Assembly: GCA_035546775.1 (NCBI GenBank)
Contig: DASZWD010000011.1
Coordinates: 1 to 57,345 of the forward strand
Direction: 5' to 3'
Origin: Acidimicrobiales bacterium
Lineage (GTDB): Bacteria; Actinomycetota; Acidimicrobiia; Acidimicrobiales; JACCXE01
DNA: 57,345 nt
Shown: one piece after another, positions 50,928 through 57,345 of the stretch
How the letters are laid out: every line of letters starts with the position of its first letter
Position numbering within the stretch: position 1 is the stretch's first letter
The notes under the pieces: generated by a model
Seen by the model: the letters and a program-made list of their open reading frames with translations, nothing else
Told to the model about the DNA's origin: nothing
The model's database searches: none
Translations under genes and position numbers: made by a program

Positions 50928-51821
50928 ATGGAACGCGTCACCCAAGCGACGATGCACCAGACGGTGCTCAATGGACTCCAGACGAGCCTGGGCCGCGTCT
51001 CCAGCGCCCAGGCGCAGCTGGCGTCGGGCAAGAAGATCAACAACTACAGCGACGCACCGGCCGATGCGTCCGCCGCCATGCGCATGAAGGCCGAAGAGGC
51101 GGACTGGACGTCCTACGGCAAGGCGGCCGACGACGGCCAGGCGTGGCTCAACACGCAGGACTCCGCGCTCCAGGACGCCACGACGGTGATGCAGCGCGTG
51201 CGCGAACTTGTCGTCGCCGGTGGCGTGTCGCTCAACGACCCGACGTCGCGCGAAGCGATGGCATCGGAGATCGACCAGCTCTCCCAGCAGCTGGCGTCGA
51301 TCGCCAATACGACCTACCAGGGCCAGTCGGTATTCGGCGGCTTCGCCTCACAGGCCGTCGCCCAGGTCGGCGGCAACTGGACGTGGGCCGGCGACAACGG
51401 CGCCGTCAACCGGCGCGTGTCGCCGGACATGGTCGTGCAGGTCAACGGCAACGGCCAGCAGATCTTCGGCCTCGGCGCCGGCCAGACGAACGTGTTCACC
51501 GCCCTCCAGACGATTTCGGCCGACTTGCGCGCCGGCAACACGTCCGCCTTGTCGAACACCGACCTGGCGATGGTCGACACGACCGCGGGCTACATCAAGT
51601 CGGGTCTCACCGCCGTGGGCGCCCGCAGCAACGTCATCGACGTCGCCAAGACGAGCGGCCAGTCGCAGATTGCCGTGCTCAAGGACCAGCGCTCGAGCCT
51701 CGAGGACGCCGACGTGGCCGAGACGGCGCTCAACATGCAGCTCGCCCAAACCGGCTACCAGGCCGCGCTGGCGGCGGCGTCTCGCTTGTCACTGCCCACG
51801 CTGGTCGACTTCCTTCACTAG
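50928..51821 (+). CDS. flgL: Flagellar hook-associated protein 3
   Basis: A 297-residue FlgL. The N-terminal coiled-coil axial region (QTVLNGLQTSLGRVSSAQAQLASGKKINNYSDAP) and C-terminal axial helix (DVAETALNMQLAQTGYQAALAAASRLSLPTLVDFL) follow the flagellin/FlgL family, without the hypervariable domain of flagellin. The ATG at 50928 is used. It forms the second part of the hook-filament junction. Confidence 0.93.
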   Translation: MERVTQATMHQTVLNGLQTSLGRVSSAQAQLASGKKINNYSDAPADASAAMRMKAEEADWTSYGKAADDGQAWLNTQDSALQDATTVMQRVRELVVAGGVSLNDPTSREAMASEIDQLSQQLASIANTTYQGQSVFGGFASQAVAQVGGNWTWAGDNGAVNRRVSPDMVVQVNGNGQQIFGLGAGQTNVFTALQTISADLRAGNTSALSNTDLAMVDTTAGYIKSGLTAVGARSNVIDVAKTSGQSQIAVLKDQRSSLEDADVAETALNMQLAQTGYQAALAAASRLSLPTLVDFLH

Positions 51822-51834
51822 GCCGTTGACTACT

Positions 51835-52266
51835 GTGACCGCAGTGCGTGTCACGACCGAACGCTTCGGCGACCTCGATGTCGCGGCCGACCGTGTGCTG
51901 TCCTTCCCGGACGGCTTGCCCGGCTTTGCCGATGCTCACGGTTTCGTCCTCGTCGACGTCCAGGACAACGAAGCATTCTTTTGGCTTCAGTCGACCGAAG
52001 ACCCGGGCCTCGCGTTCTTGTGCGCGATCCCGTGGTTGTTCTTCCCTGAATACGCACCCGAAGTGCCTGACGACGATCAGACGGCGCTCGAGTTGGAAAC
52101 CGCCGAAGACGCGATGGTGTTGACGATCCTCACCGTCCATCGCGAAGAGAGCTACGTAACGGCGAACCTGCTCGGCCCCGTGGTCGTCAACCAACGGACG
52201 CGTGTGGGGCGACAGGTCGTGCTGTTCGGCGACGATTACCCCGTGCAGGCGCCCCTCGTGGCATAG
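51835..52266 (+). CDS. fliW: Flagellar assembly factor FliW
   Basis: A 143-residue FliW. Characteristic segments: FGDLDVAADRVLSFPDGLPGFADAHGFVLVD, FFWLQSTEDPGLAFLCAIPWLFFPEYAPEV, and NLLGPVVVNQRTRVGRQVVL. The start is GTG at 51835 (51844 also possible). FliW binds flagellin and, when free, binds CsrA to relieve its repression of flagellin translation. csrA follows 9 bases downstream, and the flagellin leader at 57247-57289 carries a CsrA-type hairpin. Confidence 0.93.
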   Translation: MTAVRVTTERFGDLDVAADRVLSFPDGLPGFADAHGFVLVDVQDNEAFFWLQSTEDPGLAFLCAIPWLFFPEYAPEVPDDDQTALELETAEDAMVLTILTVHREESYVTANLLGPVVVNQRTRVGRQVVLFGDDYPVQAPLVA

Positions 52267-52275
52267 GGGCTGCCG

Positions 52276-52509
52276 ATGCTCGTCCTCACGCGACGCACCA
52301 ACGAGTCGCTGATCATCGGCCACGACATCGTCGTCACCGTTCTCGAGATCCGGGGCGACACCGTGCGCCTCGGCGTGCGGGCCCCTCGCGAGGTGTCGGT
52401 CCACCGCGAAGAGATCTACGCGAAGCTGCGCAACGAGAACCAGGCGGCGTCGAACGTCAACGCCACCGACACGTCGTTCCTGCCGAAGCCGCCCAAGCCC
52501 AAACCGTAA
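52276..52509 (+). CDS. csrA: Carbon storage regulator CsrA
   Basis: A 77-residue CsrA. It begins [20 protein letters not shown] with the RNA-contacting strand, then [29 protein letters not shown], both highly conserved. The C-terminus is extended by about 15 residues with a KPPKPKP end. It represses translation by binding GGA motifs in leaders; here the likely target is flagellin mRNA. It sits directly after fliW. Confidence 0.95.
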
Positions 52510-52548: not shown

Positions 52549-55500
52549 ATGAACGACAGGCTCGTCCTGGCCTTGCCGGAGGACGCGCGCCCCGGTGTCG
52601 TGTGGTGCGCGCCGTTGTTGAACTTCAGTGGCTACGCCGACGAGGCGCGCGCCTTCGTCCTCGGTCTGCGCGAGCGCGGCGTCGAGCTGCGGGCCGAAGC
52701 GATCGGTGATCCGTCCTCGGCGTTCGTGAAGGGCCTGTCGCCGGCGATGAAGGACGCGCTCGACGCGGCGACGCGGGCCTCCAAGCCGCGCCACTCGGTC
52801 AACGTGCTGCACGTGCCGGGCGAGGCGGCCAAGCGCTTCCCGGGTGCGAGCTACCACGTGGCCCGCACGATGTTCGAGACCGACGGCCTGCCCCGCGACT
52901 GGGTGCCGCGCCTCAACGAGATGGACGAGCTGTGGGTGCCGTCGGTGTTCAACGTCGAGACGTTCCGCGCCGCGGGCGTCACCGTGCCGATGTTCGTGGT
53001 GCCCGGTGGCGTCCATCCGGCTGCGCTGGCCCCCGCCGAGCCCCTTCCCATCGAGGGCCTCAACTCGACCGTCTTCCTGTCGGTGTTCGAGTGGAGCTTC
53101 CGCAAAGGCTGGGACGTGCTGCTGCGGGCGTGGGCCAAGGCGTTCTCACCCCACGACGACGTCACGCTGCTGCTGCGCACCTACCCCATGAAGCGCGCTG
53201 GCGGCCGAGTGACCACCGACGACGACATCGAGCGTCAGATCAACACCTTCCTCGGCCAGATCGGCACGTCGCGCAAGAAGGTGGCGCCCATCGTGGTGCT
53301 GCACGACCACGTGGCCGACGCCGACATGCCGCGGCTGTACGCCGCCGCCACCGCCTACGTCAGCCCGACGCGAGGCGAAGGGTGGGGACGCCCGATGCTC
53401 GAGGCGATGGCGGCGGGCCTGCCGACGATCGCCACGCGCTGGAGCGGCAACCTCGCCTTCATGAACGACGACAACAGCCTGCTGGTCGACGTGGAGCGCC
53501 TCGAAAAGGTCGACTACCGGGAGGAGCTGGCGTTCTACCGCGGCCAGCGCTGGGCCAAGCCCTCGGCGTCGCACCTCGCGGTATTGCTGGAAACGGTTGC
53601 CGCCGCGCCCGAAGCCGCGGCGGCGCGCGGCCGGCGGGCGCAGGAGGACGTGGCGGCGCACTGGACGTGGTCGGCCGCCGTCGACGTCGCCGCCGAGCGG
53701 CTCGAGGAGATCAATGCCGGCATGCGCCGCGCGACCCCCCGTCCCGGCGGAGTGCCGGTGCGCTGGGTGGGCGAGCAGTACTCGTGGCACAGCCTGGCGC
53801 AGGTCAACCGCGAGCTGTGCGCCCGCCTCGCCGCCACCCCGGCCGTCGACCTCGAAGTCGCGACGCGCGAGCACGCGCTGCACCGCCCCGTGCGCGGCGA
53901 CGCCGTGGCCGCCGTCGAAGCCCGCACCGGCGACGTGTTGGATCGCCCCGCCCGCGTCGAGGTGCGCCACCAGTGGCCGCCGAACTGGACCGCGCCGCGC
54001 CAGGGTGCCTGGGTCGCCATCCAGCCCTGGGAGTTCGGCGGCTTGCCCGACGAGTGGCTGCCGGCGCTTACGCATCAGGTCGACGAGGTGTGGTGCTACA
54101 CGGACTTCGTGCGCGACTGCTACGTCGCGTCCGGCGTGCCCGCCGAACGCATCCGCGTGATTCCCCTCGGCGTCGACGCGGCGCGCTTCACGCCCGACGG
54201 CCCGCGCTTCGCGCTCCAGACCCACAAGACCACGCGCCTGCTCTTCGTCGGCGGCACCATCGAGCGCAAGGGCATCGACGTGCTGCTCGACGCCTACACC
54301 GCGTCTTTCACCCGCGACGACGACGTCTGCCTCGTGATCAAGAGCACCGGCTCGGACACCGTCTACAAGCACAATTCCGCCGACGCCCGCGTGCGCGCTC
54401 TCGCCGCCGATCCGTCCCAGCCCGCGATCGAGTTGGTCACCGACGACCTGAGCGCCGACGACATTGCCGCGCTGTACCGGTCTTGCGATGCCCTCGTGCA
54501 CCCCTACCGCGGTGAAGGTTTCGGCCTGCCGATCGCCGAAGCGATGGCGTGCGGGTTGCCGGTGATCGTCACCGACTACGGCGCGGCGCGCGACTTCTGC
54601 GACGCGCAGACCGCGTACCTGATCCCGGCGAGCGTCGTGCCCGTCCCCGAAGGCGGCCTCGTCCCCAACACCACCGGTTACTGGTGGGCCGAGCCCGACC
54701 GCGACGCGCTCGGTGAGCTCATGCGCCACGTGGTGGCGTCGCCCGACGAGGCGCGGGCCCGCGGCGAACTCGGCCGCCAGCGCATCGTGCGCGACTTCAC
54801 GTGGGAACGCGCCGCTTCGCTGGTCGAGGAACGCCTCACCGCGCTGGCCGCGGTGGTGCCCGTCCGCTTCAGCGAGCACGTGCCCGCGGAACCGGCGCCG
54901 GCCAAGACCAACCAGCTGAGGTTCGAACGGATCGAGGGCGGCCTGGTGTCGGCCTGCATGATCGTGCGCGACGAAGCCGAGAACCTGCCCGGCTGCCTCG
55001 CGGCGCTCGAGGGGATGGTCGACGAGATCGTGGTGTGCGACACCGGCTCGACCGACGACACGCGCGAGATCGCCCGCGCCGCGGGCGCCGTCGTGATCGA
55101 GACGGAATGGACCGACGACTTCGCCGCGGCGCGCAACACCGCGCTCGCCGCCTGCACGGGCACGTGGATCCTCTGGATCGACGCCGACGATCGTCTGCGC
55201 GGTGACCCCGCCGCGTTCCGCAAGGTGCTGGCCGGCAACCCACCGGTCGACACCATCGCCCTCACCATCGACCAACTCGACGCCACCGGCACCGCCGTCG
55301 GCTTCTCGGATCAGAACGTGCGCCTGTTCCGCCGCACCAAGGGTCAGTGGGCCGGCCGGCTCCACGAGACCGTCGTCGCCCGCCCGGGCAAGACAGCGCT
55401 GCGCCCCGGCTTCACCACCGACGTGTGGTTCCTGCACTCCGGCTATGCGACCGAAGCCGTCGCCGGCAAAGCCAAGGCCGAACGGAACATCCGCATCGGC

Positions 55501-56586
55501 GAACTCGAACTCGCCGAAGGGCCCGCACCGTCGCGGCGCGCCTTCGTGCTGGTCAACCTCGGCCGCTCGCTGGCGGGCGCCGGCCGCCTCGACGAGGCCG
55601 TCGCCCGGTTCGAAGAAGCCCTCGCCCTCACCAAGCTCGCCGCCGAGCGGCGCCGGGCGCTGCGCCACGGCGCCGAAGCGCTGCTCGACGCCGGCCGGCC
55701 CGCCGACGCCCTCGACTGGATCGAGCGGTTGCGCGCCGTGAGCACCAACACCGACATGGCCGACTGGCTCGAAGCCATCGCGCGCACCGACCTCGGGGAC
55801 CTCGACGCCGCGCTGGCCAAGCTGACCGACTTGCACCGCGTGCGCGACGACGACGGCCTCGTGCTGCCCGACCACGTGGTGCGCATGCGCCGCGCCCGCA
55901 CGTTGCGCGACGCCGGCCGGCACGCCGAGGCCGCCGACGACCTGCTGGCGATCATCGACGACAACGTGGCGCCGCCGTGGGCGATGCTCGCCGAGGCCAA
56001 CGCGGCGGCCGGCCGCGACGCCACGCTGGTTGCCGCCGCCATCCCCCAGGGTCAGCTCACCTTCGCCCTCGGCCAGCTGCTCGGCGTGGCGCCCGAGGTG
56101 GCCGACGGCATCGCCGAGGCGATGTTCGCCCGCTTCCCGGGCGACGCGGCTGCGCTGGCGTTCGCCTCCGAGATCGCGCCCCGGCTGCCGATCGAGCGGG
56201 CGCTTGAGTGGTCGGCGCGCCTGCGCCACAACGGGCTGCCTCAGGGCTGTCCGCTTGTCGCCATCGCCTCGGACGCCAGCCGTTCGACGGCGGATCGAGT
56301 GCAGGCGGCCTGCCTGATCAATGGCGCCTTCGGCGACCACGACGCGGCGCGCGCTGCCGCCCGCGCCGTCGCGCCCGCCATTGCCGACACCGACATGGTG
56401 ACGGCGCTCGTGCTGATGGGCGAGATGGCTCCCGAGCTACTGCCCGATTTCGTCGTCGCCGCGGCCGCCGACCGCCGGCGGGCCTACGTGGTCGCCGTCG
56501 CGCTCAACGAGCTCGGGGCGCCAGACGAGGCCGCGGCGTTGCTGGCGATGGTCGGCGAGGAAGCCGCGGTGGCTTCGAAGATCTAG
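52549..56586 (+). CDS. Three-module glycosyltransferase (GT4-GT4-GT2) with TPR-like tail
   Basis: A 1345-residue protein. Module 1 (about 1-400): GT4-type, with PTRGEGWGRPMLEAMAAGLP near 273. Module 2 (about 410-780): second GT4 with YRGEGFGLPIAEAMACGLPV near 655. Module 3 (about 795-1000): GT2, beginning VSACMIVRDEAENLPGCLAAL and carrying the DxD-type motif LWIDADDRL. C-terminal about 1000-1340 is helical and TPR-like. Lying between csrA and flagellin, it is a strong candidate for flagellin glycosylation; acceptor and sugars are unknown. The ATG at 52549 is used. Confidence 0.85.
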   Translation: MNDRLVLALPEDARPGVVWCAPLLNFSGYADEARAFVLGLRERGVELRAEAIGDPSSAFVKGLSPAMKDALDAATRASKPRHSVNVLHVPGEAAKRFPGASYHVARTMFETDGLPRDWVPRLNEMDELWVPSVFNVETFRAAGVTVPMFVVPGGVHPAALAPAEPLPIEGLNSTVFLSVFEWSFRKGWDVLLRAWAKAFSPHDDVTLLLRTYPMKRAGGRVTTDDDIERQINTFLGQIGTSRKKVAPIVVLHDHVADADMPRLYAAATAYVSPTRGEGWGRPMLEAMAAGLPTIATRWSGNLAFMNDDNSLLVDVERLEKVDYREELAFYRGQRWAKPSASHLAVLLETVAAAPEAAAARGRRAQEDVAAHWTWSAAVDVAAERLEEINAGMRRATPRPGGVPVRWVGEQYSWHSLAQVNRELCARLAATPAVDLEVATREHALHRPVRGDAVAAVEARTGDVLDRPARVEVRHQWPPNWTAPRQGAWVAIQPWEFGGLPDEWLPALTHQVDEVWCYTDFVRDCYVASGVPAERIRVIPLGVDAARFTPDGPRFALQTHKTTRLLFVGGTIERKGIDVLLDAYTASFTRDDDVCLVIKSTGSDTVYKHNSADARVRALAADPSQPAIELVTDDLSADDIAALYRSCDALVHPYRGEGFGLPIAEAMACGLPVIVTDYGAARDFCDAQTAYLIPASVVPVPEGGLVPNTTGYWWAEPDRDALGELMRHVVASPDEARARGELGRQRIVRDFTWERAASLVEERLTALAAVVPVRFSEHVPAEPAPAKTNQLRFERIEGGLVSACMIVRDEAENLPGCLAALEGMVDEIVVCDTGSTDDTREIARAAGAVVIETEWTDDFAAARNTALAACTGTWILWIDADDRLRGDPAAFRKVLAGNPPVDTIALTIDQLDATGTAVGFSDQNVRLFRRTKGQWAGRLHETVVARPGKTALRPGFTTDVWFLHSGYATEAVAGKAKAERNIRIGELELAEGPAPSRRAFVLVNLGRSLAGAGRLDEAVARFEEALALTKLAAERRRALRHGAEALLDAGRPADALDWIERLRAVSTNTDMADWLEAIARTDLGDLDAALAKLTDLHRVRDDDGLVLPDHVVRMRRARTLRDAGRHAEAADDLLAIIDDNVAPPWAMLAEANAAAGRDATLVAAAIPQGQLTFALGQLLGVAPEVADGIAEAMFARFPGDAAALAFASEIAPRLPIERALEWSARLRHNGLPQGCPLVAIASDASRSTADRVQAACLINGAFGDHDAARAAARAVAPAIADTDMVTALVLMGEMAPELLPDFVVAAAADRRRAYVVAVALNELGAPDEAAALLAMVGEEAAVASKI

Positions 56587-57203
56587 ATCGCGCGGGCGCC
56601 GAGGTAGCGCTCGTTGCCGTCGAAGATCTCCCCCACACGCAGCCGCGCCACGCCGAGCCAATCGCACACGTTGTTCATCACGACCTGCGGCCGCTGAACG
56701 AGTGACTCGTAGCTCACGGCTCGCCAGCTGCGTCCGTGCACCAACGAGGCGATGAGGCAAGACGCTTCTTGCAGATTGGCCATAGCGGTGTCCTCGTCGG
56801 GAACGTGGCCCGCTCGCACTTGGGACGGGGCGGCCGCCCACCAGTCGCGCATCATGACGACGATGGCGTCCGGGTCATAGTCGGACACGGGCGCGACCGG
56901 CCAGTGACGAAGCTCTGAGCCTTCATAGGGGAACGAGCGGTGGAGGACCTCGCATCCGGCTTGTGCCAGCAGCTTCGACATGAGGCGTGTGCCGCACGAC
57001 TCACCGCCGACCACCGCGAGGCGGCGGACAGCGAATCCGCCGTCGGCGGGCTCGAGCACACCACCAAGGGCGACGGCGTGCGGGGCGACTGCGGGATCGG
57101 CGATCGCGGCGCCCGCAGGCGGGGACGAAGGCAGAATCTCGTGACCGGCCACCCGATCCGATCGGTGGGCGGCGCAGCCGAGTTGAGCGAAAGAATTTCT
57201 CAT
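56583..57203 (-). CDS. Sulfotransferase-family P-loop protein
   Basis: A protein of about 206 residues with the sulfotransferase-like P-loop VVGGESCGTRLMSKLLAQAGC and a following HRSFPYEGSEL, in the general shape of PAPS-binding sulfotransferases; the C-terminal half has VSYESLVQRPQVVMNNVCDWLG, another segment typical of that fold. I start at the internal ATG (RNSFAQLGC) because the longer reading to 57269 runs into the flagellin leader. It is convergent with the giant glycosyltransferase (stops overlap by 4 bases). Modification of flagellin glycans is an inference from position. Confidence 0.6.
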   Translation of the reverse strand: MRNSFAQLGCAAHRSDRVAGHEILPSSPPAGAAIADPAVAPHAVALGGVLEPADGGFAVRRLAVVGGESCGTRLMSKLLAQAGCEVLHRSFPYEGSELRHWPVAPVSDYDPDAIVVMMRDWWAAAPSQVRAGHVPDEDTAMANLQEASCLIASLVHGRSWRAVSYESLVQRPQVVMNNVCDWLGVARLRVGEIFDGNERYLGARAI

Positions 57204-57246
57204 CGATTCCTCAAATCGCCGGATAGGCGATCCGACGGGATGAGTG

Positions 57247-57264
57247 CCTGACAGGGAAGTCGGG
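57247..57264 (+). promoter_or_regulatory. CsrA-type binding hairpin in the flagellin leader
   Basis: A 6-bp stem CCTGAC (57247-57252) / GTCGGG (57259-57264, one G-U pair) displays the hexaloop AGGGAA, placing GGA in a hairpin loop, the classical high-affinity CsrA site (compare consensus ACARGGAUGU: here ACAGGGAAGT). A second GGA pair lies in the ribosome-binding site (AAGGAGGAGACA, 57277-57288) before the GTG at 57289, so one CsrA dimer could bridge both. Confidence 0.75.
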
Positions 57265-57288
57265 TCCACTCAAATCAAGGAGGAGACA

Positions 57289-57345
57289 GTGAGTCTTCGC
57301 ATCAACTCGAACGCTGCGGCGTTCAATGCGTATCGCAACCTCAGC
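57289..57345 (+). CDS. fliC: Flagellin, N-terminal start (partial)
   Basis: Only the first 19 codons are present (GTG start, then SLRINSNAAAFNAYRNLS), cut by the window edge. This is the conserved N-terminal axial sequence of flagellins. An AAGGAGGAGACA Shine-Dalgarno lies directly upstream, preceded by the CsrA-type hairpin. Flagellin is the filament subunit, exported after FlgK and FlgL. Confidence 0.85.
   Translation, partial: MSLRINSNAAAFNAYRNLS

What the first reader, a model, noticed from the sequence alone, without database searches (positions are those of the whole stretch)
57247..57291. CsrA-type hairpin plus GGA in the Shine-Dalgarno of flagellin, near fliW-csrA
Seen: a 6-bp stem (CCTGAC/GTCGGG) displays AGGGAA in its loop, and 12 bases after the stem the ribosome site AAGGAGGAGACA has GGA repeats before the GTG. 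Known: CsrA dimers bridge a loop GGA and a Shine-Dalgarno GGA, and FliW frees CsrA when flagellin is exported (Bacillus hag). fliW and csrA are adjacent about 5 kb upstream. Inference: the whole homeostatic loop is present here in a likely actinobacterium.
Basis: partly seen in the sequence, partly recalled or inferred. Interest (0 to 1): 0.7.

Follow-up and report, generated by a model that had tools for sequence, protein, structure and literature searches.

The report
CsrA-binding leader of an actinobacterial flagellin
The stretch just before this bacterium's flagellin gene folds into a small RNA hairpin that is almost certainly a docking site for the repressor CsrA, and the same two-site arrangement is kept, with completely different stem sequences, in flagellin genes across the phylum Actinomycetota, so a feedback loop known from Bacillus and Campylobacter appears to run here too.

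Summary
The hairpin is real and functionally constrained. At 57247-57264 CCTGAC[AGGGAA]GTCGGG closes a hexaloop of exactly the form CANGGANG that CsrA/RsmE prefer. The stem extends outward to 57242-57271. The loop GGA lies 21 nt before the GGA of the Shine-Dalgarno sequence. Across the class (Acidimicrobiia by linked record titles), 54 of 82 flagellin leaders in 21 of 24 families carry CANGGANG upstream (background about 0.05 per leader). The stems covary strongly (82% of cells paired versus 53% shuffled; six of seven pairs with changes on both sides). The Shine-Dalgarno itself is CANGGA in 178 of 206 leaders versus 31 of 270 control genes, so it looks like a second CsrA site. CsrA and FliW occur in nearly every genome with a flagellin. 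The mechanism (FliW-gated CsrA repression of flagellin translation) is inferred, not shown, and is already known in Bacillus and Campylobacter. This is a new member of a known kind, documented here across Actinomycetota. A less expected lead: the hook gene flgE carries one or two such hairpins in three families.

The parts
57242..57271 (+). Leader hairpin (upstream CsrA site): inner stem 57247-57252/57259-57264, hexaloop AGGGAA 57253-57258, outer stem 57242-57246/57267-57271, bulge 57265-57266
   Evidence: Sequence, fold, conservation and covariation in relatives
57276..57283 (+). Shine-Dalgarno CAAGGAGG, overlapping second CsrA motif (C-ANGGAN-G)
   Evidence: CANGGA at the Shine-Dalgarno in 178/206 flagellin leaders versus 31/270 control genes
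57289..57345 (+). Start of flagellin gene (GTG); continues in contig C5 (locus L002/L106, 85-894), followed by fliD
   Evidence: 141-bp contig overlap, Flagellin_N and Flagellin_C in Pfam
57218..57225 (+). Candidate sigma-28 -10 element GCCGGATA
   Evidence: Resemblance to GCCGATAA; CCGAT/CCGAC lies within 60 nt upstream of the stem in 75/127 hairpin-bearing leaders versus 30/270 controls; this copy has an extra G and is inferred only
52276..52509 (+). csrA, 77 aa, single copy in the genome
   Evidence: PF02599, E 5e-24, 1.3e-24; aligns to solved CsrA structures
51835..52266 (+). fliW, 143 aa
   Evidence: PF02623, E 1.9e-38; aligns to FliW of the FliW-CsrA complex 5dmb
50928..51821 (+). flgL (hook-filament junction protein); neighbour in the same late flagellar block
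   Evidence: Flagellin_N and Flagellin_C in Pfam

Best explanation
This is a CsrA-repressed flagellin leader of the Bacillus hag / Campylobacter flaA type. The transcript probably starts just upstream of the hairpin. One face of a CsrA dimer binds the AGGGAA hexaloop and the other binds the CAAGGAGG motif 21 nt downstream, covering the ribosome site and blocking flagellin translation. FliW, encoded next to CsrA, removes CsrA when it is free. Before hook completion cytoplasmic flagellin titrates FliW, so flagellin shuts off its own synthesis; export of flagellin frees FliW and reopens translation. Shown here: the leader architecture, its conservation and covariation, and the presence of all proteins. 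Inferred: CsrA binding, repression, FliW antagonism and the feedback.
For: Loop and closing pair match CANGGANG, named as the high-affinity CsrA/RsmE apical hexaloop in PMC4894983; the SELEX consensus is RUACARGGAUGU with hexaloops in most ligands (PMC7652899). Class-wide: 54/82 leaders, 21/24 families. Covariation score 0.70 versus 0.19 shuffled; sliding the partners destroys it. Phylum sample: 91/143 leaders have the motif, 69/143 with a stem of at least 4 bp, versus 5/140 and 0/140 controls. Shine-Dalgarno CANGGA in 178/206 versus 31/270, with N varying (A116 C39 T12 G11) while C and A are fixed. The 21-nt gap equals that of C. jejuni flaA; in other leaders 63 of 72 gaps fall within the 10-63 nt bridging range (range from PMC7652899). 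CsrA in 68/74 and 48/49, FliW in 68/74 and 47/49 flagellin genomes. Position 44 of this CsrA is Arg (R44A is the mutation used to alter the RNA-binding surface) and position 55 is Asn (the N55D mutant is used in B. subtilis FliW work).
Against: Leader folding energy is not better than shuffles. The model of the hairpin alone is too short to find the site genome-wide (best genome hits E >= 0.35). A GGA in a Shine-Dalgarno is ordinary; only its CA context is unusual. Some flagellins in CsrA- and FliW-positive genomes lack a recognisable hairpin (family f32; copies directly behind csrA in family f113). No binding or expression data exist for this organism.
Confidence: 0.9

Rival explanations
1. 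The hairpin is a general translation or mRNA-stability element (5' stabilising stem or ribosome standby site) unrelated to CsrA; its GGA is an accessory ribosome-binding sequence.
For: A 5' stem close to the inferred transcript start could stabilise an abundant mRNA; in one genome without detected CsrA (G594, L181) a GGA hairpin is still present.
Against: It does not explain why the loop is always A-N-GGA-N closed by C-G while stem sequences change freely, nor why the Shine-Dalgarno keeps the CA context. The two genomes that lack FliW without an obvious assembly gap (G278, G759) have neither site in the leaders examined (L063, L151).
Confidence: 0.06
2. Chance: a short hairpin and an ordinary GGA-rich Shine-Dalgarno in a GC-rich genome.
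For: The single leader taken alone is not significant by folding energy; AGGAGG is a common ribosome site.
Against: 0 of 140 control genes of the same genome have the motif with a stem of 4 bp or more, and conservation across 21 of 24 families with compensatory changes.
Confidence: 0.02
3. CsrA binds, but with a different output: stabilising the mRNA, or the abundant flagellin leader acting mainly as a CsrA sponge for other flagellar mRNAs.
For: C. jejuni flaA mRNA titrates CsrA from weaker flagellar targets (PMC4894983); flgE leaders carry similar hairpins in some families.
Against: The second site covers the Shine-Dalgarno, which favours repression; FliW is present as the antagonist. The sponge role and repression are not exclusive.
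Confidence: 0.15

Closest known systems
Bacillus subtilis hag leader with the Hag-FliW-CsrA partner switch
   Same: Two CsrA sites in the flagellin leader, one over the Shine-Dalgarno; fliW and csrA adjacent; no second CsrA copy
   Different: Here csrA and the flagellin are separated by a glycosyltransferase gene and a divergent gene; the stem sequence is unrelated; nothing tested experimentally in this lineage
Campylobacter jejuni flaA 5'UTR (SL1 and SL2)
   Same: ANGGA hexaloop upstream, ANGGA on the ribosome site, 21-nt spacing between the GGAs, FliW as antagonist, compensatory changes among species
   Different: In C. jejuni both motifs sit in adjacent hairpins and fliW is not next to csrA; here only the upstream hairpin is clearly conserved
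Escherichia coli glgC leader
   Same: Hairpin-loop site tethers the CsrA dimer, which bridges to the Shine-Dalgarno
   Different: Unrelated gene; CsrA there is controlled by the CsrB/C RNAs, not FliW

Membership tests
CsrA-regulated flagellin leader (hag/flaA type) | GGA in the loop of a hairpin upstream of the Shine-Dalgarno, matching the CsrA consensus | tested here: met
   CAGGGAAG hexaloop at 57252-57259; conserved and covarying in relatives
CsrA-regulated flagellin leader (hag/flaA type) | Second CsrA motif overlapping the Shine-Dalgarno at bridging distance | tested here: met
   CAAGGAGG 57276-57283, 21 nt from the loop GGA; CANGGA at the Shine-Dalgarno in 178/206 leaders
CsrA-regulated flagellin leader (hag/flaA type) | CsrA and FliW encoded in the same genome | tested here: met
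   csrA 52276-52509, fliW 51835-52266
CsrA-regulated flagellin leader (hag/flaA type) | CsrA binds the leader and represses translation | not testable with these tools
   Needs gel shift, toeprint or reporter assay
CsrA-regulated flagellin leader (hag/flaA type) | FliW antagonises CsrA and is titrated by flagellin | not testable with these tools
   Only homology: FliW aligns to 5dmb chain A, CsrA to 5dmb chain D
Rfam families | Match above gathering score to a catalogued RNA family | tested here: not met
   Only a chance-level hit, 14.4 bits against a gathering score of 41.2

The most novel reading that the evidence does not exclude
In some Acidimicrobiia CsrA controls not only the filament but also the hook: flgE leaders of three families carry one or two ANGGA-loop hairpins with differing stems, so the FliW-CsrA switch would regulate hook and filament synthesis together.
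Probability: 0.5. Interest if true: 0.5.

Novelty: new member of a known kind. Interest (0 to 1): 0.4.

Why it matters
CsrA-FliW control has been worked out in a few Bacillota and Campylobacterota. Its use in Actinobacteria was suggested only from the presence of fliW (PMC4682653), and a survey of actinobacterial flagella merely lists CsrA and FliW among genes searched (PMC10746217). The leader evidence here shows that the RNA side of the circuit is conserved across Actinomycetota, including cultured Microbacterium, Arthrobacter, Leifsonia and Planomonospora in which it can be tested. It gives a simple signature (CANGGANG hairpin plus CANGGA Shine-Dalgarno) for predicting CsrA targets outside Gammaproteobacteria.

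Tried and rejected
Whole-leader folding energy: not informative. Rfam: no family. Covariance model of the 20-nt hairpin on the own genome: only weak hits, E >= 0.35; judged by eye they look like GC-rich coding sequence. A permissive hairpin definition (any GGA loop of 5-8 nt, one bulge) gives 102/143 but also 28 in shuffled leaders, so the stricter CANGGANG count is preferred. FliW-less or CsrA-less genomes as natural negative controls: few are clean. In G152 the flagellin hit carries an internal stop, in G248 it is a short frame and in G300 it is split; G227, G245 and G369 are less complete assemblies (74-89%); in G681 the contig ends beside csrA. Only G278 and G759 are usable, and both lack the two sites.

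Full report
Observation. The sequence is as described. The 6-bp stem CCTGAC/GTCGGG at 57247-57264 encloses AGGGAA; the Shine-Dalgarno AAGGAGGAGACA starts 12 nt later and the flagellin begins with GTG at 57289. The fold extends the hairpin with GAGTG/CACTC (57242-57271). The window is a complete contig cut inside the flagellin. Contig C5 of the same genome repeats its last 141 bp and carries the whole flagellin, then fliD.

Surroundings. fliW (51835-52266) and csrA (52276-52509) are adjacent and single copy in this genome. They follow flgK and flgL. A 1345-aa glycosyltransferase gene (52549-56586) and a divergent sulfotransferase-like gene (56583-57203, minus strand; below the Pfam cut-off) lie between csrA and the flagellin.

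More than chance. The leader alone has an ordinary folding energy (z -0.56). The test is conservation. 83 flagellin-type leaders (82 after dropping one FlgL) were taken from 74 genomes of the class that have a flagellin hit. A GGA hexaloop hairpin of at least 4 bp occurs in 43 of 83, against about 2 expected from dinucleotide shuffles. Selecting on the loop only (CANGGANG, 22-120 nt upstream), 54 of 82 leaders and 21 of 24 families have it; the background is 0.05 per leader. The flanking bases, which were not used for selection, pair in 84-91% of cases for pairs 2-5, against 45-57% when partners are shuffled. On 47 distinct 20-mers, 82% of cells are paired (53% shuffled), six of seven pairs show changes on both sides, covariation is 0.70 against 0.19, and sliding the partners by one base drops it to 0.16-0.22. 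Because the loop is fixed and the stem is free, selection acts on a displayed A-N-GGA-N loop.

Phylum. In 49 further flagellin genomes of the phylum the same architecture appears with new stems (for example GCCC[ACGGAT]GGGC, GTAGC[AAGGAT]GCTAC). Over 143 leaders, 91 have CANGGANG and 69 have a stem of at least 4 bp, against 5 and 0 of 140 control genes. Named genomes add Microbacterium, Arthrobacter, Leifsonia, Herbiconiux, Planomonospora, Pilimelia, Patulibacter and several Bacillota. Solirubrobacter and Conexibacter use a pentaloop variant such as GGCGAC[AGGGA]GTCGCC. With loops of 5-7 nt and stems of at least 4 bp the totals are 127 of 206 flagellin leaders and 24 of 270 control genes. At least 15 of those 24 are flagellins that the filter missed, judging from their printed N-termini, so the true background is lower.

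Second site. The Shine-Dalgarno of these genes is CANGGA in 178 of 206 leaders, against 31 of 270 controls. Among Shine-Dalgarno sequences with GGAG it is 165 of 178 against 27 of 163. The N varies, which ribosome pairing alone does not explain. In the window it is CAAGGAGG. The loop GGA and the Shine-Dalgarno GGA are 21 nt apart. Elsewhere the median gap is 33 nt and 63 of 72 lie within 10-63 nt, the range over which a CsrA dimer bridges (PMC7652899).

Promoter. A sigma-28-like CCGAT/CCGAC lies within 60 nt upstream of the stem in 75 of 127 hairpin-bearing leaders (30 of 270 controls), mostly 5-20 nt before the stem. The window has GCCGGATA at 57218-57225, which is imperfect; that the transcript includes the hairpin is inferred.

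Proteins. CsrA and FliW occur in 68 of 74 each and in 48 and 47 of 49 flagellin genomes. Most exceptions are incomplete assemblies or genomes whose flagellin is itself broken. G278 (no FliW, CsrA only as weak fragments) and G759 (no FliW) lack both leader sites in the leaders examined (L063, L151). Relatives of G759 also have some flagellins without sites, so this is supportive only. The window's CsrA has Arg at 44 and Asn at 55, and both CsrA and FliW align to chains of the solved FliW-CsrA complex 5dmb. The flagellin keeps the ENLTASESQIRDTDMA C-terminal stretch seen in solved flagellins.

Mechanism. The best explanation is translational repression by a CsrA dimer bridging hairpin and Shine-Dalgarno, relieved by FliW, with flagellin titrating FliW. 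This is the known circuit of B. subtilis hag (PMC7652899, PMC6529632) and C. jejuni flaA (PMC4894983). Architecture and conservation are shown; binding and regulation are inferred.

Extension. The hook gene flgE has ANGGA-loop hairpins in 14 of 29 sampled leaders against 3 of 140 control genes (Fisher p about 4e-10). All 13 sampled genomes of families f55, f58 and f64 are positive, often with two hairpins in tandem, while families such as f59 have none. The window's own genome has one weaker example 37 nt before flgE. Related leaders are not independent, so the p-value overstates the evidence, but the stems differ between genomes. In C. jejuni flgE mRNA is among the transcripts listed as enriched with CsrA (PMC4894983).

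Taxonomy.

Verdict. It is a new member of a known kind; what is added is its conservation through Actinomycetota with covariation, the Shine-Dalgarno signature, and the flgE lead. No paper describing this leader in Actinobacteria was found in the held library, which does not include most subscription journals.

Noticed in passing
L106:13131-13146 (own contig C5) and L205-L232: flgE (hook) leaders carry one or two ANGGA-loop hairpins: 14/29 sampled versus 3/140 control genes; all 13 genomes sampled in families f55/f58/f64, none in f59, f78, f79, f19, f42, f17, f43, f72.
   Followed up: partly
genomes G032, G165, G238, G291, G380, G382 (family f32): Two to five CsrA-family matches per genome, and flagellin leaders with weak or atypical GGA hairpins.
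   Followed up: no
L299, L303, L308 (Solirubrobacter, Conexibacter): The flagellin-leader hairpin uses an ANGGA pentaloop (GGCGAC[AGGGA]GTCGCC) instead of the hexaloop, repeated before several tandem flagellin copies.
   Followed up: no
L154 (G525), L155 (G721): Flagellins placed directly behind fliW-csrA lack both CsrA sites, while other flagellin copies in the same genomes (L197, L198) have them.
   Followed up: no
window 52549-56586: 1345-aa multi-domain glycosyltransferase (GT4-type, GT2-type and TPR parts) between csrA and flagellin, with a divergent sulfotransferase-like gene at 56583-57203; possible flagellin modification genes.
   Followed up: partly
L095 (G152), L093 (G248): Two related genomes with no detected csrA or fliW have damaged or truncated flagellin genes; one leader has lost the hairpin and the other keeps it, suggesting decay in progress.
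   Followed up: no
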